A program made the position numbers and the translations under genes. DNA of 64,000 bases from Symbiodinium sp. CCMP2592 (lineage: Eukaryota; Sar; Dinophyceae; Suessiales; Symbiodiniaceae), in contig CAJNDT010001001.1 in NCBI GenBank assembly GCA_905221615.1, forward strand, positions 334,359-398,358. The letters are read 5' to 3'. Position 1 is the stretch's first letter; every line of letters begins with the position of its first letter. This document shows, one piece after another, positions 41,943-61,514 of this stretch. The notes under the pieces were generated by a model, which saw only the letters and a program-made list of their open reading frames with translations, was not told the DNA's origin and searched no databases.

Positions 41943-42024
41943 AACCGGAAACCCTTCAACCCGCTCTCCAGCCTCGAACTATCCCCGGGACATGCTTGAA
42001 GAGCAGGCGGAGCTCGAGGCTGCG

Positions 42025-42552: not shown

Positions 42553-42664
42553 AACTTCCTTCTTGGGGACGGACGCTTCAGGGCTTCGGTCGGGAGCTTG
42601 AGGTGTAGAGGGCTTTTGGAGCTTTTTGCACTGAGGCCAAAAGGGTTTAGGGCTTTTTTTGTTC

Positions 42665-46124: not shown

Positions 46125-46290
46125 TGGTTTAGGGTTTCGGGGTCAGAGATTAGAGGTTTAGGGGTTTAGGGTTCAGAGGTTTAGGGTTTCGGGGTTTAGG
46201 GGTATCGGGGTTAGAGGTTTACGGGTTTAGGGTTTCAGGGTTTAGGGGTTTGGGGGTTTGGGTTTTAAAGGTTTAGGGTTTAGTGATGGG
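46125..46290 (+). repeat. degenerate telomere-like TTTAGGG block
   Basis: About 18 GGTTTAGGG/GGTTTCGGGG variants just outside the left LTR of the giant retrotransposon. Confidence 0.7.
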
Positions 46291-46398: not shown

Positions 46399-46403
46399 AA
46401 TCC
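46399..46403. other. target-site duplication, left copy
   Basis: AATCC directly abuts the left LTR and recurs at the right edge of the element (61510-61514). A 5-bp duplication is the usual size for Ty1/copia integrases and fixes the element ends. Confidence 0.85.
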
Positions 46404-46503
46404 TATGTTTACAGGCAGAACAGCCAGAATGCAGACGCATATTTTCTTGAGCCAATGAACGACAGTAGGTGCAGGTGACTAGCTACATCTTCCACAAAAT
46501 ACA
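46404..46503 (-). repeat. 3' LTR (100 bp)
   Basis: Read on the minus strand it begins TGTATTTTGTGGAAGATG and ends CCTGTAAACATA. I find no difference from the other LTR. It contains TTGGCTCAAG (46446-46455), identical to the last ten bases of the dinoflagellate spliced leader. Confidence 0.9.
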
Positions 46504-46513
46504 CCCCCCGCGC
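46504..46513 (-). promoter_or_regulatory. polypurine tract
   Basis: The minus strand reads GCGCGGGGGG immediately before the 3' LTR start TGTATT. This is the expected location of the plus-strand DNA primer in an LTR retrotransposon. Confidence 0.7.
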
Positions 46514-46805
46514 ATCTTAGTGCAACGGTTGAGGCGAAGGCGATGGAAGGAAAGACTAGTCACTAGACCGTCGTGAGCATATCACTTTGTGACAGCGGAA
46601 ACAACTTGCAACAAAAGCAAATTATGCGGCCGATGTTTTGCGCCCTGTGCTGTTTGTACGAGAAGGTTAGCTACCAACCCGTTAGGGCGGTGCCGACGCT
46701 TAAATCTCACTTCACTACTAACCAGACGGCATCTAAATGTCTCAGAATACCATCCCGTTAGGGAGGTGATCAAGCTCGGCGTAATGGGCCGTCGATCAGA
46801 TGACC

Positions 46806-49800
46806 TCAGTAGATGCGGTCACGGCGGTTGGTCCTGTAGTTGTAGACCTCATGGACCCATCCTGACAAGAACCATTGGGCATGAGAGGTGTCCAGAATCG
46901 TGAAGCCATGTGGATTGCCATGAGTAGGAATGGCATTCACGACTGAAGTAGGCTGGATGTAATCTTCGGTCATCGCAGCGAACACCGCCCATTGGTACAT
47001 GTCAACGCGGTGCCAGTCCATTCGCCTGGCAAGCGAAGGATCGATGATGTTGCCGGAAAGATCGTTCCCCAACACGAAGTTTGGGTACAACAATCCTGCG
47101 ACCCTGAGCTGTTCAAAGAAGTTGACAACAGTCTCACGCATCCGGACCTGTCGGTCGGAGACATCTCTCGTCTCGAAGAACACGCCGAAGGTCGGTGGAT
47201 CATGGGGTCGCCGGCGGTAGGTCTCGGACCATTCGCGCCTTGTGCCAAGATCAACAGCAGAGGACGGTGTCTCGCTCACTGTTCCATCCATAGTGGTATC
47301 GGGAGCAACCGTTTCCGGTGCTGGACTGCTGAAGCCTGTACCAGCACGCATTGCATCCCAATCCGCGTCACTGATATAGCTGGACGGATCACGTGCCACA
47401 CGCCTGGGCGGCGGCATCGCAGGCTCCCGAGGGGTGCGATCGGTAGATGAGCCCGCTCCATCTCCAGGGTTGGTCCGGATGTGGACCTCGGTCGGACGAT
47501 GTCTGGCGATCGGGGACCTTGTGCGATTGCGCTCTGCTGTACCCGATGCACGCTCGTCAGAGCTGCGACCTCGTCGTGCAGGAGATGCCGGAGGCTCAGG
47601 TGGGCGACGTTCGGACGCGGGTGCCGAAGTGGTCAACCTCACGTGGCCGCTCTCCCCGATGCGCTTGTCCATGTAGTACTGCTGGTACCGACGATAGTAA
47701 GGGGTATTGGCCAGCAACTCGTTGAGCTGACGTTTGCCAAGTCCCTGTGCCTCAGCGGGTACCTGCAGATCTCTCTGGGTGCGAAGAGAAGGATTTGTCT
47801 TCTCGATCCTTGTCCGGCTCAGCGGCAGTTGTGCCTTGAAGAAAGTAGCCAGCTCGGCCATGATCGGCAAGATTTCATTCTGCACGACGATGTATTTCTC
47901 CCCATCGTACTGCAGGATGGAAAACTCATGCTGGTTCGACTTCACAGCCTTGATGAGAACTGCAATCTCATTGATGGTGTAAAACCGATCATGAAAACAA
48001 ATCAGACACTCCGTGAGGAGGTCGATCTCAAGCTGGCCTGTCACCCAGAGGAGGGCAACCTTTCCAGTGGCATCATAGTAGGTGGACGAACCATGCCCTT
48101 TTCCTTTGCCCTGAGGATCAGGAAGCCTCACGTTAGCGAAGCGTTGCAGCGCCTCGACAGTGTGAAAGCTGAGACCCATTTTGGCGTAGTTGTGAGCAGT
48201 GATGGGGTCCACACTGTATTGCCCCTGCGGAGTGGTGTTGTGGAGCTTCTCCGCTCTCTTCTGCTGATTGAGGACCTTCTGGCGGATGCCAGACGCTGTG
48301 CTTTGGATTCGTTCCCTTTCTTCTGGCCCTTGAATCTTCACACGCGCGTGCTTGAGCCCCGAGGATGGCTGCAAGTCAATGATGTTGACCTGCCTGCCCT
48401 CTCGGGCGGCGCTTCGCCGGAGTCTGTCGGGCTCGGCGATAATCGCAAGGTCGGTCATCTCGATGAGGCGACGTTGGCAACCTGGACAGGAGATCATTCC
48501 GTCGATGTACTTGTGATTGCACGAGCTGCAATGGTACCCGGGGTAGAGTACCAACTCCTGTTTGATCCAGTGCCTCGGTTCAATCCTCTGGCGAAGTCGG
48601 ATCCGCTTGCCTTCCATGGATGGCCAGACGTGGATGCCGATTCCGAGCGAGCCGTCATATGTTTCGATGAGCTGGTCATCGTTCTTCCTTCGCTCGATGA
48701 CTTCTTCGCCGACCTCGCTCAAGATGTCCGCCGAAATGCGAAACGGGGTCTTGCAGTCGATTGCGACCGGCGCCCACTCAGCGATGGTGAGATTCTCGGC
48801 GCTTTCCAACAAGTCGAGAAAACAGTTGTGCTGCTCCAAGGCAAATTGATCTGGACCAAAGATGTACTTGTGGCTTCCATCCTTGTTCCAGCTCGCTAGA
48901 GCGGAGTCAATGTTCCGACGGAACGCCTGGTAGGCCGGATTGACCCACACAGGCTCTGCTGTGCCCCGCTGATAAGCGTAAACCAGATATCGATTGCTGA
49001 TCCAATCTGGCGTCTCCAGTGCCCCGGAGCGAGTCTCGAAGAGCCGGACGCCGTCCAAGACGGCCATTTGGAGATCGATGGCGAACTCGACGTCCGCCGC
49101 CTCGCGAAGGCCCGCATTGTCATCCCTTTTCCATTCTGGTTGCTTTGACATCATGACAAAAGCTCTGCTACCACTCTCGTGGAGCGCGGCACCACCAGGC
49201 AACAATCCGTATCTGATGATATCTGGGAAGTGCCTCATGAAGGTGCCGTGGTAGCCCAGTTTGCAAGGGAAATCGACAAACTCCTGGGAGTACATGTCGA
49301 ACGGATGAATCTTAGGCCGAGTCGCTAGACTGGCGTCCCATGGCACAAAGGAATGCACCACGGAGTGGATGTCGGCGAGTTCGGTATCGTCACCGAAGAG
49401 CCCCGACCAATGCCCATGGATAGCCCGAGCTCGAAGCACGTCAAATTCCTGATCATTGTGCTTCTGAATGTAAACTTCGTAGCGGGCTTTCCCGTCGACT
49501 GGAGTCTTAAAGACTTCGAAGATCTGGGAGACCTTGAGCCCGTTCCAGATCTGGCTAAGGGCATCGATGAACTCTTCCCAGTCCATCGAGAGGTCGTTCC
49601 GACGGATCGTCACTGTCGGCGTTCTATTGCCGTACTCGGGCTTGTTGGTGAAGCCTCTGAGGACGAATGCACACTTCTTGCCCAGTTTGAAGCGCTGGCC
49701 CTCACTGAGGTGTCGATGATCAGACGCGAAGGGCGGCAGGTCCGGGCCTGACAACCAAAACTGACCATCCCTTCCGGGAGGTGACGCTTCTGCCTTGGCA

Positions 49801-52800
49801 CTGGCAGCGTGCTCCGCTTTCGGCGTAGGTGCCGATTTCACAGCGGTGATAGGCATCTTCTTAGGAGGCGGTGGCTGCAACGGTTCAGTAGGCTTTGCGC
49901 CAGACGATGCAGACTTCCCAGGAACTTCCTTGGGCGGGAGTGTGCCAGACGCCGACGATGAGGATGCAGCCTGCGGCACGGCAGGAGGTACAGCATGAGC
50001 CTTCGTGGCCAAAGGTAAGATACCAGTTGCCTTAGGCTCCGCGTCAGCGGGCCGCGCCTTTGGAGGAACAGGTGGTTTCTTGGCCTCCTCCAACTGCATT
50101 TCCCTCATCAAATTCTGAATCCCGACAGATCCCCTCGCGTAGAATCGGGGCCGCTTGCTGAGTTCTTCTTCAGTGAGCTCCTCAATGTCTTTGAAGATTT
50201 TGTTAGACTCAGCATCCTCGTTAGAGGTGCGACCAATCTCCAGATCGAGACCGTAGACGCCGAGGGCATTCGCCAAGGCAATCTCTTCATCAGTCGCGGC
50301 CTCTTCACCGTGACTGCCGATCTGGAGCTTGGTGATCATCACAGAGGGATCCGAGTTGTCCTCAGTTCTCTGGACAACATTTTCGGCTCCAGGTGTCGTG
50401 TCGAAGAGGACACGATCGGTGTCGGTCAGCTCCTCTGGCTCGGCACACAGAAGATCCTGATGTGCGGCCAACAGCGGAGCACTCAACACGATCTGTTCGT
50501 CGTCCCCCCGGACGTCTGGTGGTTCCTCGCGCTCAGTGTCAGCACAGACGTGCATGTCCTTCAATGGCGGGACCGTAATACGGGAGTCCGGCTTGGCCAG
50601 GTGGAAGTGCTCGAAGAAGACCACCTCTCGGCGGTTGGCAACCAATTCTGATCGCAAGTCCGTCACCGCACGGTCAAAGACCGTGGCGGTGACAAGTGAC
50701 TTGTACCATGTGACAACCGCGGCCACATTGTCAGCCGTGAAGTTCGTGTGAAACTTGTCTGGTCTGTCAGTGGCGCCCAACACTGGGTTGGGGTCGACCA
50801 GTCTCACACCTGCTTCGGCCAACACTTTCGTGTGGCGAGTCATCTCCTCGTCGTACTCTTCCGGCAGGCCGTACATAAAGCCATTCTCGGGGCCTGAGAT
50901 CATTGTCACAGAATTCACCCCTGGCCGGTCCTTTAGGGCGGCGATCTTGACGACATCTTCCTGAACCTTCTTGAGCTGCTTAATCGGCCACTCGAAGGCT
51001 TTGCGAGCCATCTCTGCCGTCTCTTTCACCCACGGCGACTGGTGGTGCCAGGTGAAGGCCTTGTAGCCCCACTTGCCGTAGACGTCATTGCCAGTCCACG
51101 AAATGAAGATGTCAAACCCTTCCGGGTGACGAGGCTCATGCTTCCTGATGAGAGCAATGATCCGGTCGTGGATGTGACCAAGACCCTGCCCCCACAGCAT
51201 GGAGACCTCCGATCCGGAGTTTCTGGGCTCGCTTCGCAGTGCTTGGCGCAGCTCATCATTGAACGTCCTTTTGGTCAGGACACGGGCTCCTTGGAACTGC
51301 ACAAAGGCCAAGGAGCTGTCACCAACCACAATGGCGAATGATCTCTCATTCGCTGGCGGTGCGATCCGCTGGAGCGAGGGCGTGAAGAGCCCGCTCAGCA
51401 AGCGCACGCTCGCCGGAAAAAGACGATGTTTCCCTAACCCTTCCGTTAGGAGGGTGAAGCGGTGGCACAGGTCGTACATTCTCGTTGAGTCGAATGCCGA
51501 CGACGCCCTTGTGCTCCAGCCCAGTGTCGCCATGTCACGCAAAAAGTCGATCAAAAGAGAAAGCCATCCGTCTAGGGAGGCGTCTTGGACCAAGGCTCCT
51601 GTTGCCGACACATCGTCGGGCGCCTTGACGCCTCTCTCGGCGTGCCACACTTCGTAAAGCGTGGTCCAACGATCGTGAGGATACTGCTTTCGCAGATCGA
51701 GCCACTCGTGAACCGGGATGCACCTCAAGAACAACGACATGTGGTCGTCACTCTCCGTCGGCTCCTTGATGAACTTCGCGATGTCTCGGAAAGCCGCGGG
51801 TTTGGTGAGTCCTGCCAACGCGTCAGCGAGGCGATCAGGATCCTGGAGGGCCAGGCGAAACTCGTCCGCCCTCTCCAAGGCATCCGCCTCGTAGATCGTC
51901 TCAAGTGAATGAGGGATGCTGGTCATTGCGTAAGCAAGACGGGAGTGAGAAGTCGCTGAAAGCTTGGGTGCTTGAGGTCTGATGGCTACCATAGCAACCG
52001 ACTTTGCAACTTGCAATTCCATGCAATGCTCTTCATAGGACTTGATGATCCTTTCGCTAACCTGCAAGTGATAAGGACTGTCTGAGCTACGACACTTCTT
52101 GTGGTTGTCCCTATCACGACACTGCAGTGAAGCGAATGCACTTCTTATGTGCGTAACATTCGTACTCAATGTGATGGGAACACGAGCCATCAATCCATCA
52201 GGACCCATGAAGTTGACCCCACAGGCGTCAAAAGACCTGTCGTTGAGCATGTGTTTGGTAAGCCACTTCTGGACTCTTTCACTGGTGAGGTAAGGGTTGT
52301 CCTTATCCGCCATCAGAACATAATCAGATCTCAACGAGTCTAATCCAGTGGAGACATCAACAAATGAAGCCCATGCTTTGTAGAATGTTTTCTTGGTAAT
52401 TTCATTGCTGCACATCCCATCCGCTAGGAGGGTGAAGGCTGTCTGATGAGTCTGGGAAGACGATGGAATACGGAGCCAAACCAACACCGACGCTCCAGCC
52501 TTATGGAGTCTTTTAGCCTTGTTGAGTAGGTCCTTCCTAGCATGAACTGAATTGATCTCATCCATACCTTGGACCGTAACCCAGCTGACCGAAGGATGAC
52601 TCTGCTGATCTATCGACTTCATAAACGACACACCATCAAACGCAACCTCAATGATCAAAGTCTTGCACTTGGTTTCTGGCCTCTTGAGCACGCCTTCCGG
52701 CTGCTGTGGTGCGGCCGTGGCTTTCCTGACTCTAGATTTGTCAGGGCCAATGCGCATAAGCTCAAGGGCTCTAGTCCACTTCTCCAGGTTGGTGAAGGGT

Positions 52801-53420
52801 TTAGTGAGGATGTCGGCAGCTTGCAACAAAGTGCTGATATACGCCATCTTATAATGCTTTCTTCTAAATTGTTCTGCGATCCAACCGAGATTGATTCTTT
52901 GTGTTTTGTCGGCATGTCTAAAAGCTGGCGACTTACCGGACTCAAGAATTCTTATGGTGGCCTGGTTATCTTCGAGCACAATGGGTTCGATAGCATGCGG
53001 CATGCAGGCTATGAGTCCAATGTCTTTACTGCCAGACGTTGGGGCAAGCTTCTCAATGTCAACGCCCCCCGAATCCCTGATACCGGCGAGTTCCTTATGC
53101 ATCTCTGCTTCCGCTTCCGCGAAGCGACGATAGTCCATTGCCGATCTTCGGTAGATGCAGATTAAGGTATCGCATTGCACTGAATAGGAGGAGTTATGAA
53201 GCTCTTCCCAGGCGACAGCTTCCTCAATTCTAGTCCATTTCCCCTTACTTTGAATCCATACATCTCTCAATGGATGACTGGTCATCTCAGAGGGTTCGGG
53301 TATAGTTGATACACCCGTGTAGACACAGAGGTGCCTGCCGTCAGGCAAACGATGCGATCCTGTTGACTTTATTTTGGACACTTCATTGTCAGGGACCTTA
53401 GTAAGATCAATTAGGATCAA
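46806..53420 (-). CDS. third frame of the giant copia element: RNase H end, SGNH-like, Tpt1-like and zinc-ribbon domains (2204 aa)
   Basis: The frame opens on a TTG inside the polyprotein, so it is probably a continuation of Pol. Residues 145-210 are the end of copia RNase H (catalytic Asp in EDNQATIRI). About 255-465 is a Cys/His-containing domain of unknown role (C-R-D-R-D-x-H-x2-C near 434). About 690-915 looks like an SGNH hydrolase: GDS (S702), G-x-G (744-746), GND (N778) and D-x2-H (D888, H891). About 1100-1220 is Pro/Ala-rich linker. About 1245-1490 resembles Tpt1/KptA RNA 2'-phosphotransferase: RARAIHGHWSG, YHGT with GLLPGG, SRAFVMMS (R1419) and IDLQMAVLDGVRLFET. A CxxC-x10-CxxC zinc ribbon is at 1631-1648. 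The tail includes a helical region and a basic disordered segment. Domain calls are by motif only. Confidence 0.8.
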   Translation of the reverse strand: MILIDLTKVPDNEVSKIKSTGSHRLPDGRHLCVYTGVSTIPEPSEMTSHPLRDVWIQSKGKWTRIEEAVAWEELHNSSYSVQCDTLICIYRRSAMDYRRFAEAEAEMHKELAGIRDSGGVDIEKLAPTSGSKDIGLIACMPHAIEPIVLEDNQATIRILESGKSPAFRHADKTQRINLGWIAEQFRRKHYKMAYISTLLQAADILTKPFTNLEKWTRALELMRIGPDKSRVRKATAAPQQPEGVLKRPETKCKTLIIEVAFDGVSFMKSIDQQSHPSVSWVTVQGMDEINSVHARKDLLNKAKRLHKAGASVLVWLRIPSSSQTHQTAFTLLADGMCSNEITKKTFYKAWASFVDVSTGLDSLRSDYVLMADKDNPYLTSERVQKWLTKHMLNDRSFDACGVNFMGPDGLMARVPITLSTNVTHIRSAFASLQCRDRDNHKKCRSSDSPYHLQVSERIIKSYEEHCMELQVAKSVAMVAIRPQAPKLSATSHSRLAYAMTSIPHSLETIYEADALERADEFRLALQDPDRLADALAGLTKPAAFRDIAKFIKEPTESDDHMSLFLRCIPVHEWLDLRKQYPHDRWTTLYEVWHAERGVKAPDDVSATGALVQDASLDGWLSLLIDFLRDMATLGWSTRASSAFDSTRMYDLCHRFTLLTEGLGKHRLFPASVRLLSGLFTPSLQRIAPPANERSFAIVVGDSSLAFVQFQGARVLTKRTFNDELRQALRSEPRNSGSEVSMLWGQGLGHIHDRIIALIRKHEPRHPEGFDIFISWTGNDVYGKWGYKAFTWHHQSPWVKETAEMARKAFEWPIKQLKKVQEDVVKIAALKDRPGVNSVTMISGPENGFMYGLPEEYDEEMTRHTKVLAEAGVRLVDPNPVLGATDRPDKFHTNFTADNVAAVVTWYKSLVTATVFDRAVTDLRSELVANRREVVFFEHFHLAKPDSRITVPPLKDMHVCADTEREEPPDVRGDDEQIVLSAPLLAAHQDLLCAEPEELTDTDRVLFDTTPGAENVVQRTEDNSDPSVMITKLQIGSHGEEAATDEEIALANALGVYGLDLEIGRTSNEDAESNKIFKDIEELTEEELSKRPRFYARGSVGIQNLMREMQLEEAKKPPVPPKARPADAEPKATGILPLATKAHAVPPAVPQAASSSSASGTLPPKEVPGKSASSGAKPTEPLQPPPPKKMPITAVKSAPTPKAEHAASAKAEASPPGRDGQFWLSGPDLPPFASDHRHLSEGQRFKLGKKCAFVLRGFTNKPEYGNRTPTVTIRRNDLSMDWEEFIDALSQIWNGLKVSQIFEVFKTPVDGKARYEVYIQKHNDQEFDVLRARAIHGHWSGLFGDDTELADIHSVVHSFVPWDASLATRPKIHPFDMYSQEFVDFPCKLGYHGTFMRHFPDIIRYGLLPGGAALHESGSRAFVMMSKQPEWKRDDNAGLREAADVEFAIDLQMAVLDGVRLFETRSGALETPDWISNRYLVYAYQRGTAEPVWVNPAYQAFRRNIDSALASWNKDGSHKYIFGPDQFALEQHNCFLDLLESAENLTIAEWAPVAIDCKTPFRISADILSEVGEEVIERRKNDDQLIETYDGSLGIGIHVWPSMEGKRIRLRQRIEPRHWIKQELVLYPGYHCSSCNHKYIDGMISCPGCQRRLIEMTDLAIIAEPDRLRRSAAREGRQVNIIDLQPSSGLKHARVKIQGPEERERIQSTASGIRQKVLNQQKRAEKLHNTTPQGQYSVDPITAHNYAKMGLSFHTVEALQRFANVRLPDPQGKGKGHGSSTYYDATGKVALLWVTGQLEIDLLTECLICFHDRFYTINEIAVLIKAVKSNQHEFSILQYDGEKYIVVQNEILPIMAELATFFKAQLPLSRTRIEKTNPSLRTQRDLQVPAEAQGLGKRQLNELLANTPYYRRYQQYYMDKRIGESGHVRLTTSAPASERRPPEPPASPARRGRSSDERASGTAERNRTRSPIARHRPTEVHIRTNPGDGAGSSTDRTPREPAMPPPRRVARDPSSYISDADWDAMRAGTGFSSPAPETVAPDTTMDGTVSETPSSAVDLGTRREWSETYRRRPHDPPTFGVFFETRDVSDRQVRMRETVVNFFEQLRVAGLLYPNFVLGNDLSGNIIDPSLARRMDWHRVDMYQWAVFAAMTEDYIQPTSVVNAIPTHGNPHGFTILDTSHAQWFLSGWVHEVYNYRTNRRDRIY

Positions 53421-53422
53421 TG
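53403..53422 (-). other. 10-bp tandem duplication at the frame 2 / frame 3 break
   Basis: GATCAAT recurs at 53405 and 53415 (period 10). Without one 10-bp unit, the Pol frame would read straight from KTID into LTKVPDN of the third frame, so the duplication alone explains the frame change. Confidence 0.7.
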
Positions 53423-56400
53423 GTTTTGCCTTTCGTTAGAGAGGCGTGTTGCTGCTTGGTATCTCCCCCCGCGTTCAGGAGTACGCTCCAAAGTGCGGAT
53501 GAAGGAAGTCCCAATGCACGCAGCGACACATTTGCACAAACAACCTCAGCTTCAGTACTGCTAAGTGCTGTGCTTGTTTGTTTCTTACTAAAAGCACTAA
53601 GCGGAAAGTAAGTGTTGGGGCCAACTAAAGCCAGGAATCCCCCTGATGTACTGCGATTGTCGTGCTCACCTGCATGATCTGAATCAGCGAATAGCCAAAG
53701 ATTGCACTTATCAAGACTATCGCCCACAAACCCAGACATTTTATAGTGCAAGGTGGTTTGCACATAACACATCAGACGGTGCAACGCCTTATCGCAATCA
53801 GCGGACCACTTGGTAACCCGACTAGCCAGACCCTGAACGGCACGAAGAAGATCGAATCGAGCCATTCTTGCTGCAAATAGCAATTTCATCAGGACTCTGC
53901 TTGCTATCGGAGCAAGTTTGCCCTTGGCCTCTGCCTCAGCTTCCACCGGGCGAGCAATTTTGTCATCGTAGAACGGAGTGCTTGCTTTCTTCAGAGTCTG
54001 GAACTCTGGGCCAGCTAGCTCTTTGTAGCGATCAATGGCCTGTTGCAAGAATGAACTCATATCGTAGATGACTTGCTTAGTGGGTGCTTTCATGCATCCT
54101 TTGCCCTCGTCAAGCTGATTGACATCATAGAAGGCCTGCTTTCTAGCAGCTTTCTTGGCTTTGGTTTTGTCCCGCACTTTCTTGACAGCAGCAAGTGCAG
54201 ATGCGCGGGAATGTTGATTAGACAAAAGGTAAGTGGAACCAATCCATAGTTCCCCCCGCTTTCTATTTTGACCATGTTCATCCCAAACCTCTTCAAGCGA
54301 ATTCGTAGAAACCAAGGACCTCACTTCCGTGAGTCGTGTTTTGCCAAGGTTCATCGCCTGAGCTTCCTCTGATCTGAGACTATATAGCGCTTTGCGGGGC
54401 TGAAGGTGGTGCCTAACAACCACACCTTCTTCAGGGTAATATTCGGTGTAATCCTCAACGGCAGCAGCTGATGCAGGCTTGGCAGCAGGATCAGGAATGC
54501 TCTTGTCGAACACGTGAGCAAAGGGATGGTCAGCTTTTTCAAGCGACGTGGAGGTGGACACATGTTCACAACCGAGATATCTTCCCAGCGGAGCAGGAGT
54601 GTCCATGTCGATCTTAGAAGCTATTAACTCCCATCCTTTAGCCATGTTTTGCTTTGGTCCTGCCATCTTGAAATCATCAACATAAACCGCAAGCAACAGC
54701 TTGAGATCAGGATGATAAAACACAGAAGGCCAAGCCGCCGGAAATACCAAATGAAACCCAACTTCTTTTAACATCTTTTCACAGTGCTGCTCCCAGAAGC
54801 CTCCACTATCTGGGTGTCCATACAAAGCTAATATAAGCTTAACGACTGGATCACTGAATTTACCATGCCAACCTTTCGGCCAGCGCTCCTTAGGCAATCT
54901 TACCCAAGTTTCAATCCCCTTCAGCTTGGTTTGTGTGTAGGCCTGTTTGCCGTCGGCCTGTTCACACACGTTCCCAGGCATGTGCCCATAGGCATCCAGG
55001 GTTTTGCCTGCTTCCATCGTAGCAGGGCTGGATCCAAGTTCACTGAACAATGCAGCATCATTGCTTTCGTCGCGAACATTATTCCCTTGGAACACTGTGC
55101 GCCCTTTGAATTTCCTTAAAGGGTCGCCAGCAGGGAGTTCGCTTCCTTTTTCCACACAGATTTCGAAAATTTTCCCAACGTGGACCTTTTGCCCGCTCTT
55201 CTGAGCCCGATTGGAGACGTCGCTCCATTCCCGAACAGATTCCATGTCCCAAGCCTTTTTGGTCATCAGTTTGTTCCATTCAACATCAAGGGAAGCCTGA
55301 GCTTTAGGGTTCTGGGAAAGCTCCTTCTTATTCACCGGCCTAGCAACCATAGCCAACTTATCCATGATGTCTTCATGGGAAACAGGCGAGGTGTTAGCCA
55401 GCTTTTCCCTGTGCTCGGCTTCATTCCCCTGAGTGACAGGCATTGCTGGGAAGGAACCATCTCCGTTAGGAGTGGGAGTCTTAGCAGGCTTGATCTCAAA
55501 GGTGGTTTGACCAACCCACTTGAACCGAAGTTTCTTATTTCTCCGCCTTACGTTACGCCAATCATCTTCATCTTCGATGATGCTGTCTCCTTTGTAAGGG
55601 ATAATTTTGGTGCAACGGGCATTGGAGATCCTACTGAGATCAATCGGACAATCGGTGAGGTCGGGAGAGAACAACTCATTTCTGGGTCGGAAATGATACC
55701 TGATCAAATGATTTCCAGTGATGCCCCAAGCATCTTGCATGCGAGACGCCGCGCCAGCGGGCCGATCGGTGCTTGAACCTCGGCCGTCATCGCCGTCAAT
55801 TTCTTTGAGAGCGGCTTTCATGTTCGCTTCATCAATAGCCTTCTTCTTCTGGCTCTTTGACATGTTGACCCATAAATGTGAGGGGATATCGTCAGGCTTG
55901 GTGGAACCTCGTGTCCCCCCATATCTCCTACCTAGAGTTCCCCCTGAGTCATAGTAGCGACCTCCCTCGGGCAAATCAACAGACTTACCACTCACGGGAT
56001 CAATGACTTTAGGTCGCTCAACCTTTCGGTCGGCGTCTTCAACATCCATCTTTTGTTCCTCCGACATCTCGGCATCCTGATTTTCAAGAGGAGTGTTGTC
56101 TGGACCTTCAAGCGCATCCGAGGCGTGCCCCAAGCGAACCTTTTCGTAACGTTCCTTCATAGGAAACGCGAAGTCTCCTTCGGGAACACTGAATTGGCTA
56201 GCAACGATGGGCTTCAAGCACTCGTGGAAATCATTCCTATTCAAATCCTTGATGGGAAGAACAATTATCTCCTTTTTCCATTTCATACCAGGCTGAAAAT
56301 GATAGCCGAGGAATACGCCGGGTTCGGATGTTGGCTCGAACCTTGGACGATTCTTTCTTTGAGCTTTGGGTCCTACCCAATAATCGACGCGACATCCAAA

Positions 56401-58299
56401 AGGAAGTGCTTTGCCAGGAAAGGCTGTCCCGAGTCTGCGATACCAGGGAGCATACTCAATCCCGTTAGGGTGAGAAATGTTGAATGCAGTGCATGCATGC
56501 TCGAGGGCTTGTGGCCAATATACATGTGACAATCCAGCCTGCAACAAATTGCACCTCGTGCCTTCTGTCGTGGAACGGACTGCCCTTTCGGCCATCGAGT
56601 TGGATTGGTGGATATACTTCTTGCTCTTTTCATGCCTCCAACCAAGAGACTTGGCACTACGTTCGAGTTCTTTGGCATTGTCGCTGTAGAAGACACCAAC
56701 CTTATCCTTACTCGAAACGAAATGTTGAAGTGCAGCCTTACACTCCATTTCATCTTTCAGTGCAGAAGGATACGCATACATGAATGAAGTCGCCACATCC
56801 TTGATCACGAGAGCCAATCTAGCTTCTTCAATGACCTCATGATTGTCCCTGTAGATCACCACATGATCGGCGGTAATGTGATCACCGAAGCTGGTGGCTT
56901 CGACGGAACGAAAGCCATCGGTCTTGTAACCCGGGGCCTTGTACATCTTAGCCTGATTGCATACCGAACAATAGGGATTCTTAGGGATGTGTGTCATGAG
57001 ATGATGCAACGAAGTAGCTTCCTTCTTAAGCTTTTCAATTCCCTTAAGAACTTTGGGATCAGAACTGCCCTCCCCATCTGGGACCTTAGACTCTCCGTCA
57101 GGAGGTCGTCCAAGATCCGGCTTGGGCGGTTCATCAGGTTCGATGTCCGAGCCGAACTCATCGATCATGCGACTGAGATGCTCTTGCTCACTGAGCTCAG
57201 CAGTTTGCTTTGCTCCTGATTTTTCAAGACCTTCAAGGAGCTTGTCGAACTCTTCAGCGGCTTTGCTAGATGCATCTTCGGCAACATCGGACTTAGGAGG
57301 TTTCTTTTCTTTCTTTTTCTCCGATTCCCTAATCTTGACCTTAGGCTTGGTCCTAGGCTCGGAAGGCCTTACCGCAGAACCCCGTGTTACAAGGTCCTCA
57401 AGCGGCCGTTCATCCTCGGAATCGGGAGCGAGGGCAGGAATCGCAGTACGCTTAGAGAGATTGAACCCATAACTCCGAAGCTTGGCAATTTCATTGCTCT
57501 GAAGCTTGGGAACAGCTCGATTGACGTACGCGGTAATGCTCCATCTATCCCCTTTCCAAGGAAGAACACAGTGAAAACGTTTGGGATCGAACTTCACAAG
57601 TTTGTTGCGGGAGACACGTTTCTTGCCATACAAAGTCTTCAACCCTACCTTCTGAGTGATGACATTGTGCTCTCCCTTTCGGGCAGCGGGGTCGTGAATC
57701 CAAAGTTCACCACCTTCGAAGCTGCCAAGACTGATAGTGAAATTGGTGGAATCCTTCATGTTGTGAGCATCCTTGTGAACCTTAACGGACGAACCGTGAT
57801 TGATGCAAACCGATGAGCAATCTCCCGTCATTCCATGATTCTGGAGGAATGCATTGATGTATCGGGTAGAATGGGCATACTTCTGCGTACGGTTAGTAAT
57901 GCCCTGGACGCCGCCATGAGCGAAAGCGCCAAGCACAAGGTACTCGACGTTTCCGTCGGTGCGACTCTGGTTGTTTGTAATTGACTTACGATTGCTCTTG
58001 GAGGGCTTGCAGTTCATAGATTGCAGTAGCTTCAGACAAGACTTACACTGGAAGTCAAGGTTCTCAAGTAACTCTTTTGCAATCCTCTCTGACTCCTCAA
58101 CATACTTGCCAGGTTTCTCAACCGGCGATGCAGGAAGGTTGGGCTCCGGACGTGGTCGCGCGGGAAGCGCAACATTTTCCTTCCAAGACTTCAGGTATGG
58201 AACGTTGTCCTTCACATCGAGATAAACCTTGTTCCCGTTGTGGTCCCTGAAGTAGGGTCTACAATTAGCTCTCCAGATAAAGTCAAACCCTTCCTCCAT
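53407..58299 (-). CDS. Pol frame of the giant copia element: 2OG-Fe(II) oxygenase-like module, integrase, reverse transcriptase, RNase H (1630 aa)
   Basis: The first ATG (58299) lies inside the end of the protease domain. Residues about 145-262 resemble a 2OG-Fe(II) dioxygenase: VHKDAHN (H175, D177), GGELWI, then FDPKRFH (H243) and DRWSITAY (R252). Next come an HHCC zinc region (H433, H437, C444, C447) and an integrase core with D478, D540 and E571 in SMAERAV. Reverse transcriptase has D1116 in QADGKQAY and YVDD (D1208, D1209). RNase H starts with ADSDHAGEHD (D1539) and SSTEAEV (E1583). The frame ends in the middle of RNase H; the last catalytic Asp is in the next frame downstream. The 53407-53420 overlap coincides with a 10-bp tandem duplication. 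Expected to act in a cytoplasmic retrotransposon particle and, for integrase, in the nucleus. Confidence 0.9.
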   Translation of the reverse strand: MEEGFDFIWRANCRPYFRDHNGNKVYLDVKDNVPYLKSWKENVALPARPRPEPNLPASPVEKPGKYVEESERIAKELLENLDFQCKSCLKLLQSMNCKPSKSNRKSITNNQSRTDGNVEYLVLGAFAHGGVQGITNRTQKYAHSTRYINAFLQNHGMTGDCSSVCINHGSSVKVHKDAHNMKDSTNFTISLGSFEGGELWIHDPAARKGEHNVITQKVGLKTLYGKKRVSRNKLVKFDPKRFHCVLPWKGDRWSITAYVNRAVPKLQSNEIAKLRSYGFNLSKRTAIPALAPDSEDERPLEDLVTRGSAVRPSEPRTKPKVKIRESEKKKEKKPPKSDVAEDASSKAAEEFDKLLEGLEKSGAKQTAELSEQEHLSRMIDEFGSDIEPDEPPKPDLGRPPDGESKVPDGEGSSDPKVLKGIEKLKKEATSLHHLMTHIPKNPYCSVCNQAKMYKAPGYKTDGFRSVEATSFGDHITADHVVIYRDNHEVIEEARLALVIKDVATSFMYAYPSALKDEMECKAALQHFVSSKDKVGVFYSDNAKELERSAKSLGWRHEKSKKYIHQSNSMAERAVRSTTEGTRCNLLQAGLSHVYWPQALEHACTAFNISHPNGIEYAPWYRRLGTAFPGKALPFGCRVDYWVGPKAQRKNRPRFEPTSEPGVFLGYHFQPGMKWKKEIIVLPIKDLNRNDFHECLKPIVASQFSVPEGDFAFPMKERYEKVRLGHASDALEGPDNTPLENQDAEMSEEQKMDVEDADRKVERPKVIDPVSGKSVDLPEGGRYYDSGGTLGRRYGGTRGSTKPDDIPSHLWVNMSKSQKKKAIDEANMKAALKEIDGDDGRGSSTDRPAGAASRMQDAWGITGNHLIRYHFRPRNELFSPDLTDCPIDLSRISNARCTKIIPYKGDSIIEDEDDWRNVRRRNKKLRFKWVGQTTFEIKPAKTPTPNGDGSFPAMPVTQGNEAEHREKLANTSPVSHEDIMDKLAMVARPVNKKELSQNPKAQASLDVEWNKLMTKKAWDMESVREWSDVSNRAQKSGQKVHVGKIFEICVEKGSELPAGDPLRKFKGRTVFQGNNVRDESNDAALFSELGSSPATMEAGKTLDAYGHMPGNVCEQADGKQAYTQTKLKGIETWVRLPKERWPKGWHGKFSDPVVKLILALYGHPDSGGFWEQHCEKMLKEVGFHLVFPAAWPSVFYHPDLKLLLAVYVDDFKMAGPKQNMAKGWELIASKIDMDTPAPLGRYLGCEHVSTSTSLEKADHPFAHVFDKSIPDPAAKPASAAAVEDYTEYYPEEGVVVRHHLQPRKALYSLRSEEAQAMNLGKTRLTEVRSLVSTNSLEEVWDEHGQNRKRGELWIGSTYLLSNQHSRASALAAVKKVRDKTKAKKAARKQAFYDVNQLDEGKGCMKAPTKQVIYDMSSFLQQAIDRYKELAGPEFQTLKKASTPFYDDKIARPVEAEAEAKGKLAPIASRVLMKLLFAARMARFDLLRAVQGLASRVTKWSADCDKALHRLMCYVQTTLHYKMSGFVGDSLDKCNLWLFADSDHAGEHDNRSTSGGFLALVGPNTYFPLSAFSKKQTSTALSSTEAEVVCANVSLRALGLPSSALWSVLLNAGGDTKQQHASLTKGKTIDPN

Positions 58300-61200
58300 G
58301 CACTTCTGTCCAACCGAGAGAACGGATGGTGAATCGGGTAGAATCTACCGGGTAGAACATATGGTTCGGCGGTCGTATTGATCGAAGGAATCCTAACCTT
58401 GCATTGTTTGTCAGCATAGTTAGGTCCGTTGGCGGTAATCATGTTGATAGGCCGATCCGACAAGAAATCCTTTACTTCACCGAGAACGTTTTTCGATATC
58501 AAATCCTGAGCACTGCCAGTGTCGGCAATCCATTCCATTTCAATCACAGGATCTGATCGGCTCCCCTTTGCTGGGCATCCGACAGATATGCCGGGCGCAA
58601 TGCAATGAGCACAACCGAACTCAGTCTTACACATGAACTTACATGCTGGATTCGTACCTTGGTTCATACCTTCAACGGTTGACCTCAGCATTTTAGCTGT
58701 CGCCAAAGCATCCCGAACATCCTGCCCATCAGGTTTGGGCTTGTAGTTAACAGGAAATTCTTCACTGAAAACCCTCGGCTCGATTTCAACCTCACGCCAC
58801 TTGGAAGATTCAGGGGGCGTGGGAATGTAGTGATACTCAGGAGCATTCGAGAATCGCACAGATGCCAGAGCAACGTGAGCGGTGCTTGCACACGAGTCAA
58901 TGAAGTTCGGCATTTCCTTCCGGAAAGCGTGTGCATCGGCTTGGGATGCCGAACCTGCGACAAGTGCGCCTAAGAGGCAGACGGCGGCCGGAAGCGAAGC
59001 CTTAGGTTTCCGCCCCCCCGAGCCCTTGCTGTTCCCAGAGCCTTTGCTCCCCTTGGAGCCTCCACTACCCTTGGAACTTTTAGAGCTGGAGCGAGACTTC
59101 TTCCTATGCTTCTTTTCTTTCTTCTGTTTCTTACTCTTCTTTTCGCCGCTAGACTCTCTACCGCTACCAGTGGCAGGAGCAGAAGGCTGGCCTTTGTGTA
59201 TGAAACGGCACTTGTCACCCTTGTTGCATTTACCATGCTTGAAGAATTTGCACTCAGCATTAATCTTCCCAGGAGATGGGCTCCCCCTTGCGGAGGGCGA
59301 CTTGCCTCGGCCTTTACCTTTGCTTGGTGTCCTACCACGTGGCTTCTCGGGTATCTGATGCTTATAGGAACATTTTTCTTTGTTGCACGAACCGTTCCGA
59401 ACAAAGTCAATGCAGAAGCCTTTGGGCACACGCTTTAGCGGTGCGGGTGCCGATGGCATACCTGCTGCGGCCTGCCTTGCAATCCGTTCCCGGTTGCGCT
59501 CAAGCCGTTTGATCTTGATGACTCGGTTAACGGCATTGTACAGATATTCATAGGATTTCTCCTGTGTGCCGTCTACTGCCCTTTCATAGATGGCTATGTC
59601 GTGCGCCAAAAGCTTGCACTTCTTAACCTGTCTATGAAACAAGGGTTGCAAAACATCGTCAGCAGGTGCTTTCTTCATGCCTGAGAGGACAGTATCCCAG
59701 TTACGCACGAATTGCACAAGATTTTCGTTAAGCATGACGACGTTGAGCAGATCCTCCATATCGTACACAGACCCGTGGAGTGCGTTGGTCGACAAATAAG
59801 CGTTGAGCTTATGTAGAATCTGTCGGCCACGAACTAAGCGTCCTTCGTGTCCTTCCCTCTCTTTAAAAGTGTCAATCTGGCGAGCAAAATCACCTTCCAG
59901 AATGTTTGTGATTGCCGAGAGGATCTTCGCATCAAGCGTTGTGAAACCGTTAGGATCACGAAGGGACTCTTCCGTGGTATCATCCTTCCACACTTCACCG
60001 AGCCACTCGAAAGCCTCATCGGGACGGTCAGAGGCGGCGACCACAGCCTCGCGTGCGCGAAGCCTCCAGTTTCGATAGTTCTCTGGCTGGGGAAACTTTG
60101 GAAACACAATCTTCTCAGCTTCCTTCACCTTGGGCCTTCCCCTTGTCGCCTCGGTTTCCTCGACATCATCCTTGTCTTTCTTCGACTTAACGACTTTCTT
60201 GAACATCTTCAGGAGGTCCTTTTTAGATAGGGAGATAGACGACGATGATGATGAATCAGATGAGTCTCTTTTCTTTTTCTTCTTTTTGTCCTTTTTCTTT
60301 TTCTTCTTCTTGTCACGGGAATCGTCATCGGGCTCATCCCCGTCGCCGTCGCTTTCGGGAGGCGAGTCATCTCCACCTCCCCCTGGCGGGCCACCATCTA
60401 CTTTACCCAGACCCGGAGGGGTATGAATAGGGTGTTCAATGGGAGACTGATCTCCTACGGCAGTTGGTGAATATGCCGTGGCTTTCGCCAGGCGATCACG
60501 AAGCTCGGCATTGGTGCGCTCAAGCTTCGTCATCGATTCAGCCTGTTGGCGATGCACTTGCATGAATGCACCCATCTCAGACTTGAGTTGACTTAGTTCG
60601 CCATTCATGACTGCAACGGTGTCTTGGCTAGCCCGACTTCGATTAGCCAGCTCTCTTTCAGCTTGGGCTACAACGTCGGAGACTGTAACCTCAGCCTGAT
60701 GAAGCCTGAGCTTGTAGTCAACGGCTTCACGTCGCATCTGCGACAACTCGTCGCTGTGCTTATTAGCCATGCTTTCGCCGGCTGCTCGAAGCAGTTCTTC
60801 TTTCTGTTGCAGACGACTCTCCGCTTGGGCAAACTCCAACCGAAGTTGGGCAGCACCGGATAGCGCCTGTGCATGAAGCTGGTTGAATTGCTCCCTATGC
60901 AAATTGTTTGCTTCGGCCATGATCAATCTGTGGCGTGCTTCAGCTTCAGCTGCAACGGCTGGTCCTGTGTCTACCTGATGCACATGGACTGCTTGTTGCA
61001 CCGTTGGCGCAAGGACATTTTGTTGATAGTAGTTCGCGACGTTTCTGATCTCGCTGGGTGAATATTGGGCCGCATTATATTGTTGAGGCGATCCCGCCAG
61101 GGATGCGAGTTGGTGCGCTGGGCTTGAGACATATGCCCATTCTGACACCGCTCCTGGTGCACCTCTTCGGGGATCTGGTTGGGCCATCACGGCCAAGGCC

Positions 61201-61370
61201 TCTGCCGTCAGAGGAACAACTTGGCCACCCTCTCGGGTACCGGGGACAGCCGGATCCGTGCCATCGTCTTGGACGGACATGGCAGGAAGAGAACTGAGAT
61301 CCTCGGTATCAACGCGAGCCGCGGAAATGTCTATCGCGGGAATACCTGCAGGATTTACGGGAGCATCCAT
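58212..61370 (-). CDS. Gag-protease frame of the giant copia element (1052 aa)
   Basis: The ATG at 61370 is only 39 bases inside the 5' LTR. Residues 1-140 are Pro/Ala-rich; about 140-300 is predicted coiled coil (Gln/Glu/Leu/Ala-rich heptads); about 325-400 is acidic, then a run of Lys and Ser. About 415-640 is the likely capsid-like Gag core (FPKFPQPENYRNWR onward). Two CCCH fingers follow: C653, C662, C667, H671 and C707, C715, C721, H725, where retroelements usually have a CCHC knuckle. A Lys/Ser/Gly-rich stretch and a short hydrophobic segment (about 793-805) precede the aspartic protease, whose DTG is at 950-952 (WIADTGSAQDLIS). The frame leaves the protease domain after about residue 1010, at a 14-bp tandem duplication, and then reads non-homologous sequence to its stop. 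Confidence 0.88.
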   Translation of the reverse strand: MDAPVNPAGIPAIDISAARVDTEDLSSLPAMSVQDDGTDPAVPGTREGGQVVPLTAEALAVMAQPDPRRGAPGAVSEWAYVSSPAHQLASLAGSPQQYNAAQYSPSEIRNVANYYQQNVLAPTVQQAVHVHQVDTGPAVAAEAEARHRLIMAEANNLHREQFNQLHAQALSGAAQLRLEFAQAESRLQQKEELLRAAGESMANKHSDELSQMRREAVDYKLRLHQAEVTVSDVVAQAERELANRSRASQDTVAVMNGELSQLKSEMGAFMQVHRQQAESMTKLERTNAELRDRLAKATAYSPTAVGDQSPIEHPIHTPPGLGKVDGGPPGGGGDDSPPESDGDGDEPDDDSRDKKKKKKKDKKKKKKRDSSDSSSSSSISLSKKDLLKMFKKVVKSKKDKDDVEETEATRGRPKVKEAEKIVFPKFPQPENYRNWRLRAREAVVAASDRPDEAFEWLGEVWKDDTTEESLRDPNGFTTLDAKILSAITNILEGDFARQIDTFKEREGHEGRLVRGRQILHKLNAYLSTNALHGSVYDMEDLLNVVMLNENLVQFVRNWDTVLSGMKKAPADDVLQPLFHRQVKKCKLLAHDIAIYERAVDGTQEKSYEYLYNAVNRVIKIKRLERNRERIARQAAAGMPSAPAPLKRVPKGFCIDFVRNGSCNKEKCSYKHQIPEKPRGRTPSKGKGRGKSPSARGSPSPGKINAECKFFKHGKCNKGDKCRFIHKGQPSAPATGSGRESSGEKKSKKQKKEKKHRKKSRSSSKSSKGSGGSKGSKGSGNSKGSGGRKPKASLPAAVCLLGALVAGSASQADAHAFRKEMPNFIDSCASTAHVALASVRFSNAPEYHYIPTPPESSKWREVEIEPRVFSEEFPVNYKPKPDGQDVRDALATAKMLRSTVEGMNQGTNPACKFMCKTEFGCAHCIAPGISVGCPAKGSRSDPVIEMEWIADTGSAQDLISKNVLGEVKDFLSDRPINMITANGPNYADKQCKVRIPSINTTAEPYVLPGRFYPIHHPFSRLDRSAWRKGLTLSGELIVDPTSGTTTGTRFISM
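58335..58362 (-). other. 14-bp tandem duplication at the frame 1 / frame 2 break
   Basis: CGGGTAGAA recurs at 58335 and 58349 (period 14). Without one 14-bp unit, the protease would continue from YVLP into DSPSVLSVGQKCMEEGFDF, which is the natural end of a copia protease followed by the start of the Pol frame. Confidence 0.75.
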
Positions 61371-61397
61371 CGCGATCTACAAACGAAGTGAGACCTA

Positions 61398-61409
61398 CGG
61401 CTGATAACC
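61398..61409 (-). promoter_or_regulatory. candidate primer-binding site
   Basis: The minus strand reads GGTTATCAGCCG directly after the 5' LTR end ACATA. It shares TATCAG with the initiator-tRNA-Met complement used by many copia elements, but the match is partial. Confidence 0.45.
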
Positions 61410-61509
61410 TATGTTTACAGGCAGAACAGCCAGAATGCAGACGCATATTTTCTTGAGCCAATGAACGACAGTAGGTGCAGGTGACTAGCTACATCTTCCA
61501 CAAAATACA
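61410..61509 (-). repeat. 5' LTR (100 bp)
   Basis: Identical by eye to the LTR at 46404-46503, with TTGGCTCAAG at 61452-61461. Transcription of the element should start here, but I see no recognisable core promoter element. Confidence 0.9.
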
Positions 61510-61514
61510 AATCC
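61510..61514. other. target-site duplication, right copy
   Basis: AATCC, matching 46399-46403. Confidence 0.85.

What the first reader, a model, noticed from the sequence alone, without database searches (positions are those of the whole stretch)
48951..49688. RNA 2'-phosphotransferase (Tpt1/KptA)-like domain inside a retrotransposon
Residues about 1245-1490 of the third frame carry motifs in Tpt1/KptA order: R-A-x-x-H-G-H, Y-H-G-T with a following G-L-x-P-G, an S-x-R segment, and I-D-x5-L-D-G-x-x-L-F-x-T. Tpt1 removes the 2'-phosphate left at RNA splice or repair junctions. A retroelement carrying it could heal cleaved tRNA primers or its own RNA genome, or undo ADP-ribose or phosphate marks on RNA. 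The role is inference.
Basis: partly seen in the sequence, partly recalled or inferred. Interest (0 to 1): 0.82.

Follow-up and report, generated by a model that had tools for sequence, protein, structure and literature searches.

The report
RNA-repair-like domain in dinoflagellate retrotransposons
A jumping gene of a dinoflagellate alga carries a strongly conserved relative of the RNA-repair enzyme Tpt1/KptA, and unrelated jumping genes in the same genome carry ordinary Tpt1 domains, which suggests that copying RNA into DNA benefits from an enzyme that handles phosphates on RNA.

Summary
Window 48906-49748, minus strand, encodes a two-lobed Tpt1/KptA-like domain inside a 15.1-kb Copia-type LTR retrotransposon of a dinoflagellate. 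The single sequence is below Pfam's cut-off (17 bits against 26), but related elements in the genome score 43-47 bits. A profile of three Copia families matches canonical Tpt1 over 209 columns (hhalign E 3e-16; score 110, 100 permuted controls at most 22). The 22 best Foldseek PDB hits of a template-free, low-confidence model are all Tpt1/KptA. The three tetrad arginines, His and Thr of HGT and an NAD-phosphate arginine are kept in every copy covering them, across families 33-40% identical. The tetrad histidine is glycine in 63 of 63, so this is not a canonical Tpt1. dN/dS in family A is 0.04-0.26. Beyond the finding, two LINE-type elements of the same genome carry canonical Arg-His-Arg-Arg Tpt1: one fused to the LINE endonuclease, one beside a PARP-like stretch, the latter apparently in over 100 copies. 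I found no report of Tpt1 in retrotransposons. Most likely mechanism (inferred): NAD-dependent handling of phosphates on element RNA. Healing of a cleaved tRNA primer is possible but does not explain the LINE copies.

The parts
48906..49748 (-). Tpt1/KptA-like domain (281 aa used as alignment row 1), core 48951-49688
49656..49658 (-). Arg codon of LRG: equivalent of tetrad Arg1 (Rsl R16 / Cth R18)
   Evidence: 63 of 63 copies that cover it
49653..49655 (-). Gly codon in place of the tetrad His (Rsl H17 / Cth H19)
   Evidence: Gly in 63 of 63 copies that cover it
49425..49427 (-). Arg codon of RAIHGH: equivalent of tetrad Arg3 (Rsl R64 / Cth R68)
   Evidence: invariant with canonical Tpt1; 65 of 65
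49242..49250 (-). HGT motif (His and Thr that bind the adenosine ribose of NAD+ in Tpt1)
   Evidence: His 69 of 69, Thr 69 of 69
49164..49166 (-). Arg codon of SGSRAF: equivalent of tetrad Arg4 (Cth R121)
   Evidence: 70 of 70
49104..49106 (-). Arg codon of GLR: equivalent of Rsl R137 / Cth R139 (NAD+ phosphate arginine)
   Evidence: 70 of 70
46806..53435 (-). third open frame (2209 aa): end of an RNase H-like stretch by eye, GDS-type stretch with no database match, Tpt1-like domain, C4 zinc-ribbon-like motif
   Evidence: (zinc ribbon models only at E 0.06-0.14, below cut-off; GDS stretch and RNase H stretch no hit)
53407..58344 (-). second open frame (1645 aa): 2OG-Fe(II) oxygenase domain, integrase stretch by eye, reverse transcriptase RVT_2
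54538..55113 (-). Copia-type reverse transcriptase (RVT_2, E 6.2e-9)
57523..57807 (-). 2OG-Fe(II) oxygenase domain (PF13640, E 1.7e-6, 29.3 bits against cut-off 27)
58212..61376 (-). first open frame (1054 aa): gag-like with CCCH zinc finger (E 1e-5, below cut-off); DTGS aspartic-protease motif by eye
61410..61509 (-). 5' LTR, 100 nt, identical to the 3' LTR
46404..46503 (-). 3' LTR, 100 nt
46399..46403 (.). target-site duplication AATCC
61510..61514 (.). target-site duplication AATCC
61395..61409 (-). primer-binding site GGTTATCAGCCGTAG, the same in the one copy each of families B and C that was read
61452..61461 (-). TTGGCTCAAG in the LTR, equal to the 3' end of the dinoflagellate spliced leader (also 46446-46455)

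Best explanation
Shown: the element is a Copia-type LTR retrotransposon of a dinoflagellate whose polyprotein contains, downstream of the reverse transcriptase, a divergent Tpt1/KptA domain (RNA lobe plus NAD+ lobe) under strong purifying selection. Inferred: the domain binds NAD+ and a phosphate on RNA and transfers ADP-ribose to that phosphate, as Tpt1 does in its first step. The use I favour is on the element's own transcript or template RNA: removing (step 2) or masking (step 1 only) 2'- or end phosphates left by host cleavage and religation, which in yeast mark an mRNA for renewed cleavage, so that full-length RNA survives to be copied. It would act in cis from the polyprotein, presumably after proteolytic release. 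Canonical Tpt1 in two separate LINE-type families of the same genome suggests a need common to retrotransposition, not one peculiar to tRNA-primed elements. That the domain is Tpt1-related: about 0.93. That its job is NAD-dependent chemistry on element RNA: the confidence below.
For: Homology: (permutation controls). Between 10 Copia and 7 canonical domains 13 columns are invariant, including tetrad Arg3 and Arg4, His and Thr of HGT, the GH after Arg3 and the NAD+ arginine; Arg1 is at least 90% (L072 there lacks its N-terminal part). Selection: dN/dS 0.037-0.255 in 45 of 45 pairs of 10 family A copies, 0.045-0.067 in every pair with dS above 0.5. 22 of 120 listed matches, the window's own among them, give the identical top score and 31 of 120 lie in open frames of 4000 aa or more, so the domain travels with recently mobile copies. 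Same fold elsewhere in the genome: in the one copy of LINE family E followed out, Tpt1 and the endonuclease share one 1501-aa frame, followed by RVT_1. In LINE family G a 665-aa frame with Tpt1 and a PARP-like stretch lies about 2.1 kb behind an RVT_1 frame (1 copy read that far); the joining stretch is shared by 3 of 3 copies read. PMC6456296 (passages): 2'-phosphorylated ligated HAC1 mRNA is cleaved and decayed in yeast lacking Tpt1. PMC9095486 (passages): KptA/Tpt1 erase internal 2'-phosphate of tRNA in E. coli cells. PMC9503650 (passages): KptA domains embedded in polyproteins of a few RNA viruses, with a proposed role in processing viral RNA ends.
Against: The tetrad His is Gly in 63 of 63 copies, and alanine at any tetrad residue abolished RNA 5'-phosphate ADP-ribosylation by human TRPT1 (PMC6582358, passages); against that, Rsl H17A slowed step 2 only threefold (PMC6333775, passages). 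The Rsl H138 equivalent is Glu (40) or Pro (30) in 70 of 70, and H138A accumulated the step-1 intermediate. The window copy alone is below the Pfam cut-off, and the structure model is weak. No substrate, expression or activity was tested. Whether this dinoflagellate makes 2'-phosphate on RNA is unknown: the search for an RNA ligase family did not complete. In the HAC1 paper an extended cDNA reaching beyond the 2'-phosphorylated junction was seen, so 2'-phosphate is not shown to be an absolute block to reverse transcription.
Confidence: 0.42

Rival explanations
1. The Copia domain is an RNA ADP-ribosylating (capping or masking) enzyme: it performs step 1 of the Tpt1 reaction and largely stops there, leaving ADP-ribose on RNA phosphates, to protect element RNA from exonucleases or to mark it for packaging.
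For: Tetrad His and the second NAD-phosphate residue are replaced; in RslTpt1 the H138A and R137A mutants accumulate the ADP-ribosylated intermediate (PMC6333775, passages); TRPT1/KptA ADP-ribosylate 5'-phosphorylated RNA (PMC6582358, passages).
Against: Human TRPT1 loses 5'-end ADP-ribosylation when any tetrad residue is mutated. Arg3, which matters mostly for step 2, is retained.
Confidence: 0.25
2. Primer healing: the domain removes phosphate from the 3' end of a cleaved tRNA half used as primer.
For: The PBS begins GGTTATCAGCC right behind the LTR in the window copy and in one copy each of families B and C although their LTRs differ; its complement CTACGGCTGATAACC can be read as an anticodon stem-loop ending in CC, similar in kind to the internal priming of copia and Ty5 (PMC5371799, passages).
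Against: Ty5 uses RNase P cleavage, which by established knowledge leaves a 3'-OH and needs no healing. The PBS can equally be read as complement to an ordinary tRNA 3' end. No tRNA gene was found: one pattern gave 48 hits, of which 7 were read and 0 were tRNAs by ARAGORN; the T-arm pattern gave 0 hits against 2 for its reversed control. LINE-type elements, which need no tRNA primer, also carry Tpt1.
Confidence: 0.12
3. The domain has lost catalysis and serves as an RNA- or NAD-binding module, for example to hold template RNA or phosphate ends in the particle.
For: Tetrad His lost in 63 of 63 copies; the H[VI][HQ][FL] motif of the canonical domains is F-x-M-[MF] here.
Against: The catalytic arginines and the NAD+ ribose-binding His/Thr are invariant or nearly so between this domain and canonical Tpt1 and hold across families 33-40% identical to the window copy.
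Confidence: 0.15
4. Chance resemblance or a hitch-hiking host gene fragment with no role.
For: Single-sequence Pfam score below cut-off.
Against: Permutation-controlled profile match, low dN/dS, presence in three Copia families whose LTRs differ in the copies read.
Confidence: 0.03

Closest known systems
Tpt1/KptA/TRPT1 RNA 2'-phosphotransferase (PF01885)
   Same: Both lobes align (209 columns); tetrad Arg1, Arg3, Arg4, His and Thr of HGT and the NAD+ arginine kept; best structural neighbours are Tpt1/KptA.
   Different: Tetrad His is Gly, the H[VI][HQ][FL] motif is F-x-M-[MF], the Rsl H138 position is Glu or Pro; a long insertion lies between the lobes; embedded in a retrotransposon polyprotein.
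KptA domains embedded in polyproteins of RNA viruses (Beihai picorna-like virus, Botrylloides leachii nidovirus) and KptA-Nudix of Bodo saltans virus (PMC9503650, passages)
   Same: A Tpt1/KptA domain carried by a selfish replicator, in the RNA viruses within a polyprotein.
   Different: Those are viruses, in which KptA is described as rare; here LTR and LINE-type retrotransposons with tens to apparently over a hundred genomic copies.
Dinoflagellate retrotransposons with captured DNA methyltransferases (PMC5890265, passages)
   Same: Recurrent capture of a nucleic-acid-modifying enzyme by dinoflagellate retrotransposons.
   Different: There the enzyme acts on DNA and Copia elements carry none; here an RNA/NAD-type enzyme in Copia and LINE-type elements.
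Ty1/Copia LTR retrotransposons
   Same: LTRs, 5-bp duplication, PBS behind the 5' LTR, gag-like frame, RVT_2 reverse transcriptase.
   Different: 15.1 kb long; 31 of 120 listed domain copies lie in single frames of 4053-4886 aa; a 2OG oxygenase domain lies upstream and a Tpt1-like domain downstream of RT.

Membership tests
Tpt1/KptA RNA 2'-phosphotransferase | Match to the PTS_2-RNA profile above the curated cut-off | tested here: inconclusive
   Family C 43-47 bits (3 members, met), family B 24.9 (1) and family A 17 bits (2), below 26; 19 of 19 hit at E <= 10.
Tpt1/KptA RNA 2'-phosphotransferase | Two-lobe architecture: winged-helix RNA lobe plus ART-fold NAD+ lobe | tested here: met
   hhalign of each lobe alone E 3e-7 and 2e-13; permuted controls were run for the whole and for the N lobe. 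22 best Foldseek hits Tpt1/KptA, but from a low-confidence model with TM 0.2-0.5.
[quoted passage not shown]
   Arg-Gly-Arg-Arg in every copy that covers it (63 of 63). Hence not filed as a canonical Tpt1; filed as Tpt1-related.
Tpt1/KptA RNA 2'-phosphotransferase | HGT motif and NAD+-phosphate arginine | tested here: met
   His 69/69, Thr 69/69, Arg 70/70; the Gly of HGT is Ala in 29/69.
Tpt1/KptA RNA 2'-phosphotransferase | NAD+-dependent removal of RNA 2'-phosphate | not testable with these tools
   Needs purified protein.
Copia LTR retrotransposon | RVT_2 reverse transcriptase | tested here: met
   E 6.2e-9, 36.2 bits against 31.6.
Copia LTR retrotransposon | LTR pair, target-site duplication, PBS | tested here: met
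   100 of 100 nt identical LTRs, AATCC on both sides, PBS-like 15-mer at 61395-61409; the tRNA it pairs with was not identified.
Copia LTR retrotransposon | Integrase and RNase H domains | tested here: inconclusive
   No Pfam hit above cut-off (SH3_retrovirus E 0.015; RNase H stretches none); motifs recognised by eye only.
LINE with Tpt1 (families E and G, elsewhere in the genome) | RVT_1 with Exo_endo_phos, and canonical Arg-His-Arg-Arg Tpt1 | tested here: met
   Family E (one copy): Exo_endo_phos 1.2e-10, RVT_1 2.7e-21; family G: RVT_1 2e-16 in one copy, Tpt1 5.9e-41 in another; tetrad seen. The endonuclease of family G was not looked for, so G is LINE-type by its RT only.

The most novel reading that the evidence does not exclude
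Retrotransposons of different classes in one dinoflagellate have separately recruited Tpt1-type enzymes because the host fights or processes retroelement RNA by cleavage, 2'-phosphorylation or phosphate-end marks; the elements carry the eraser. The Arg-Gly-Arg-Arg Copia form would be a new enzyme subfamily specialised for element RNA, and its presence would point to an unknown RNA-phosphate-based control of mobile elements.
Probability: 0.2. Interest if true: 0.9.

Novelty: new variant of a known kind. Interest (0 to 1): 0.7.

Why it matters
Why Tpt1/KptA persists in organisms without the fungal tRNA-splicing route is an open question (stated in PMC6333775 and PMC6582358, passages). Mobile elements that pay to carry it, under strong selection, supply a natural setting with a likely substrate: retrotransposon RNA. 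The case is directly testable with short recombinant domains, and it extends the known habit of dinoflagellate retrotransposons of capturing nucleic-acid-modifying enzymes from DNA methylation to RNA phosphate chemistry. The Arg-Gly-Arg-Arg variant also offers a natural experiment on what the tetrad histidine is for.

Tried and rejected
Rejected: chance motif match (controls); a dead passenger. 'Family D' (about 30% identity, L050 and L051) is not a separate family: its two copies equal family C up to about residue 204 and then differ. The 'half-tRNA' reading of the PBS was first thought strong. The tRNA-like pattern hits that were read (7 of 48) are not tRNA genes; 5 of the 7 carry sequence like the PBS complement and are presumably PBSs of other Copia families, which was not shown. 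An ordinary 3'-end reading fits as well, so the idea was demoted. No relatives of the domain in viral contigs or genome contigs, nor of canonical copies in viral contigs; these scans rest on two to six short peptide patterns each. The GDS-type stretch (P0002 about 680-1000) gave no Pfam or PDB hit; the 2OG piece gave no PDB hit. The tree keeps Copia A/B/C apart from LINE E, LINE G, F and L072 with 100/100, but branches are long and no outgroup was available, so the number of separate captures is not settled. The first residue counts took in frames outside the matched part of partial copies; one search recounted only copies that cover each residue, and its numbers are used. Not answered: PBS count in the genome, stem-loop pattern, RNA ligase family, initiator-tRNA pattern, second structure job. 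Literature searches bearing on Tpt1/KptA in retrotransposons or dinoflagellates: 3 of 3 listed; 25 of 61; 15 of 10,459; 10 of 32; 12 of 2,734; 10 of 62; 10 of 17. None of the listed titles or abstract starts reports it; papers not listed were not seen, and one search's top paper (PMC4053983), which holds one mention of KptA, was not opened. That public Symbiodinium annotations contain proteins named kptA is recalled only.
Full report
What is there. The window lies in a 1.098-Gb assembly. Its genome holds 429 exact copies of a 21-nt stretch of the dinoflagellate spliced leader and none of the reversed control, so it is taken as a dinoflagellate; the leader sequence itself was recalled. The finding sits on the minus strand in a Copia-type LTR retrotransposon, window 46404-61509, 15,106 nt, with 100-nt LTRs that are identical, an AATCC duplication on both sides and a primer-binding site GGTTATCAGCCGTAG right behind the 5' LTR. 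In this copy the coding region is broken into three frames of 1054, 1645 and 2209 aa, whereas 31 of the 120 listed genomic matches to the domain lie in single open frames of 4053-4886 aa. The window copy is therefore recent but damaged. The frames carry a CCCH zinc finger in the gag-like part (below cut-off), a 2OG-Fe(II) oxygenase domain above the Pfam cut-off, an RVT_2 reverse transcriptase, and behind it the domain in question.

Is it Tpt1? The single sequence is a weak PTS_2-RNA hit, 17.5 bits against a cut-off of 26. The genome search returned 120 matches (a lower bound, since 150 of 360 candidates were scored): 52 full-length ones at 91-100% identity (family A), further families near 39% (B) and 35-37% (C), and pieces. 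70 copies were fetched and read, of which 9 cover only part of the domain. I aligned the window copy with 18 others. All 19 hit PTS_2-RNA; of six scanned apart, family C reaches 43-47 bits, B 24.9, A 17. A profile of the 19 finds four Tpt1 sequences at the top of the PDB (E 0.0012 to 0.012), followed by two designed proteins (E 0.022, 0.051) and, near E 1, HMG-box and other proteins. Against eight canonical Tpt1 domains from the same genome, hhalign gives E 3e-16 over 209 columns and both lobes; 100 column-permuted targets reach a score of at most 21.9 against 110.4, and the reversed target 17.4; the N lobe alone scores 43.8 against at most 17.9 for 100 permutations, the C lobe alone 77.3. The template-free AlphaFold2 model, made from families A-C only, is poor, above all in the N lobe (mean pLDDT 43.7). 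Its 22 best Foldseek hits are nevertheless all Tpt1/KptA, with rmsd 4-16 A and TM 0.2-0.5, so it supports the family assignment and not details.

Active site. In published Tpt1 structures the tetrad is Arg18, His19, Arg68, Arg121 (Cth numbering), His101 and Thr103 of HGT bind the adenosine ribose, and Arg121, Arg139 and Arg140 hold the NAD+ phosphates (PMC6333775, passages). Here, counting only copies whose match covers the residue: Arg1 63 of 63, Gly in place of His 63 of 63, Arg3 65 of 65, His of HGT 69 of 69, Thr 69 of 69, Arg4 70 of 70, Arg139-equivalent 70 of 70, and Glu (40) or Pro (30) at the Arg140 position. In an alignment of 10 Copia and 7 canonical domains 13 columns are invariant, among them Arg3, GH, His and Thr, Arg4 and the NAD+ Arg. 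The tetrad is thus Arg-Gly-Arg-Arg. For function the reports disagree: Rsl H17A lowered step 2 threefold, while alanine at any tetrad residue abolished 5'-phosphate ADP-ribosylation by human TRPT1 (PMC6582358, passages). I do not file the domain as a canonical Tpt1.

Selection. 23 of the 70 copies were used. Among ten family A copies all 45 pairs have dN/dS of 0.037-0.255, and 0.045-0.067 in the pairs with dS above 0.5. Family B (6 copies, 15 pairs) gives 0.058-0.316, family C (7 copies, 17 of 21 pairs computable) 0.044-0.297. The copies were taken from matches with open frames, so the sample leans to intact ones.

The genome around it. A Pfam search of the whole genome with PF01885 gave 152 matches, every listed row over the cut-off, from 1550 first-look candidates of which 150 were scored; of 14 control genomes 3 rang. 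Those read are canonical domains with Arg-His-Arg-Arg, HGT and an RxH motif (L072 lacks the N-terminal part). Family E (L071, L073-L086): one copy followed out (C2857) has Tpt1 and Exo_endo_phos in one 1501-aa frame, then RVT_1, then a ubiquitin hydrolase-like domain. Family G (L089-L100 were read; most further rows have the same profile range, similar scores and mostly the same frame length and are assigned by that alone): a 665-aa frame with a PARP-like stretch (22.1 bits, below the cut-off of 26.7; one copy scanned) and Tpt1 (E 5.9e-41). In one copy it lies about 2.1 kb behind a frame with RVT_1 and the same kind of hydrolase; the joining stretch is shared by 3 of 3 copies read. Family F (L087, L088) is of unknown context, and L072 is only presumed to be a host gene. 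So two LINE-type families besides the Copia element carry the fold. The tree separates the Copia clade from the rest at 100/100 but has long branches, so the number of captures is open.

How it most likely works. Shown: family, residues, selection, placement. Inferred: NAD-dependent ADP-ribosyl transfer to an RNA phosphate. In yeast a ligated but 2'-phosphorylated mRNA is cleaved and decayed (PMC6456296, passages); KptA erases an internal 2'-phosphate on tRNA in E. coli cells (PMC9095486, passages); a few RNA viruses embed KptA in polyproteins (PMC9503650, passages). An enzyme that clears or masks phosphates on element RNA would help LTR and non-LTR elements alike, which is why I prefer it to primer healing. 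Against a simple 'block to reverse transcription' version, the yeast paper saw an extended cDNA beyond such a junction. Primer healing stays possible: the PBS is the same in the window copy and in one copy each of families B and C despite different LTRs, and its complement can be read as an anticodon stem-loop. It can also be read as a tRNA 3' end, no gene was found with the two patterns answered, and Ty5 obtains its internal primer end by RNase P (PMC5371799, passages).

Novelty. KptA in viral polyproteins (PMC9503650, passages) and capture of DNA methyltransferases by dinoflagellate retrotransposons (PMC5890265, passages) are known. Tpt1 in retrotransposons, in several families and in an Arg-Gly-Arg-Arg form, was not seen in the listings of searches of an open-access library, which are capped and do not cover most subscription papers.

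Noticed in passing
window 46446-46455 and 61452-61461 (-); L107/L108, L109/L110: LTRs of one copy each of Copia families A, B and C, otherwise different, contain TGGCTCAAG, the 3' end of the spliced leader (families A and C: TTGGCTCAAG). This suggests that the R region keeps a spliced-leader relic, so that a trans-spliced genomic RNA can still make the first strand transfer.
   Followed up: partly
L089:1420-3414 (-), L101-L104: LINE-type family G encodes a 665-aa protein with a PARP-like stretch (below Pfam's cut-off, one copy scanned) followed by a canonical Tpt1 domain: two ADP-ribosyltransferase folds in one retrotransposon protein, apparently in over 100 copies.
   Followed up: partly
L106:5519-6709 (+), L101:1-2736 (+): Both LINE-type families encode a ubiquitin carboxyl-terminal hydrolase-like domain (PF00443, E 4e-9 and 2e-8) behind the reverse transcriptase (one copy each).
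   Followed up: no
window 57523-57807 (-): 2OG-Fe(II) oxygenase domain in the Copia polyprotein between the protease region and the integrase stretch (both by eye), above the Pfam cut-off.
   Followed up: no
window 50436-51398 (-): A GDS...GQG...TGND...D..H stretch (SGNH-hydrolase-like by eye) with no Pfam or PDB match.
   Followed up: partly
G000, L111-L115: Sequence like the PBS complement occurs with other flanks (5 of 7 pattern hits read, of 48), presumably other Copia families; whether those carry Tpt1 is unknown.
   Followed up: partly
window 41888-42583, 46126-46289, 61560-61716, 62724-62853: Interstitial telomere-like CCCTAAA/TTTAGGG arrays on both sides of the element.
   Followed up: no
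window 40145-41387: Six degenerate 233-nt repeat copies, two of them 97% alike.
   Followed up: no
window 32550-33419 (-) and 33629-34438 (-): Two very similar frames of 289 and 269 aa by eye, a likely recent local duplication.
   Followed up: no
window 3867-6917 (+) and 27165-32324 (-): By eye a second, different Copia pol frame, and a long frame that looks like a Helitron-type replicase/helicase with an N-terminal ubiquitin-hydrolase-like start.
   Followed up: no
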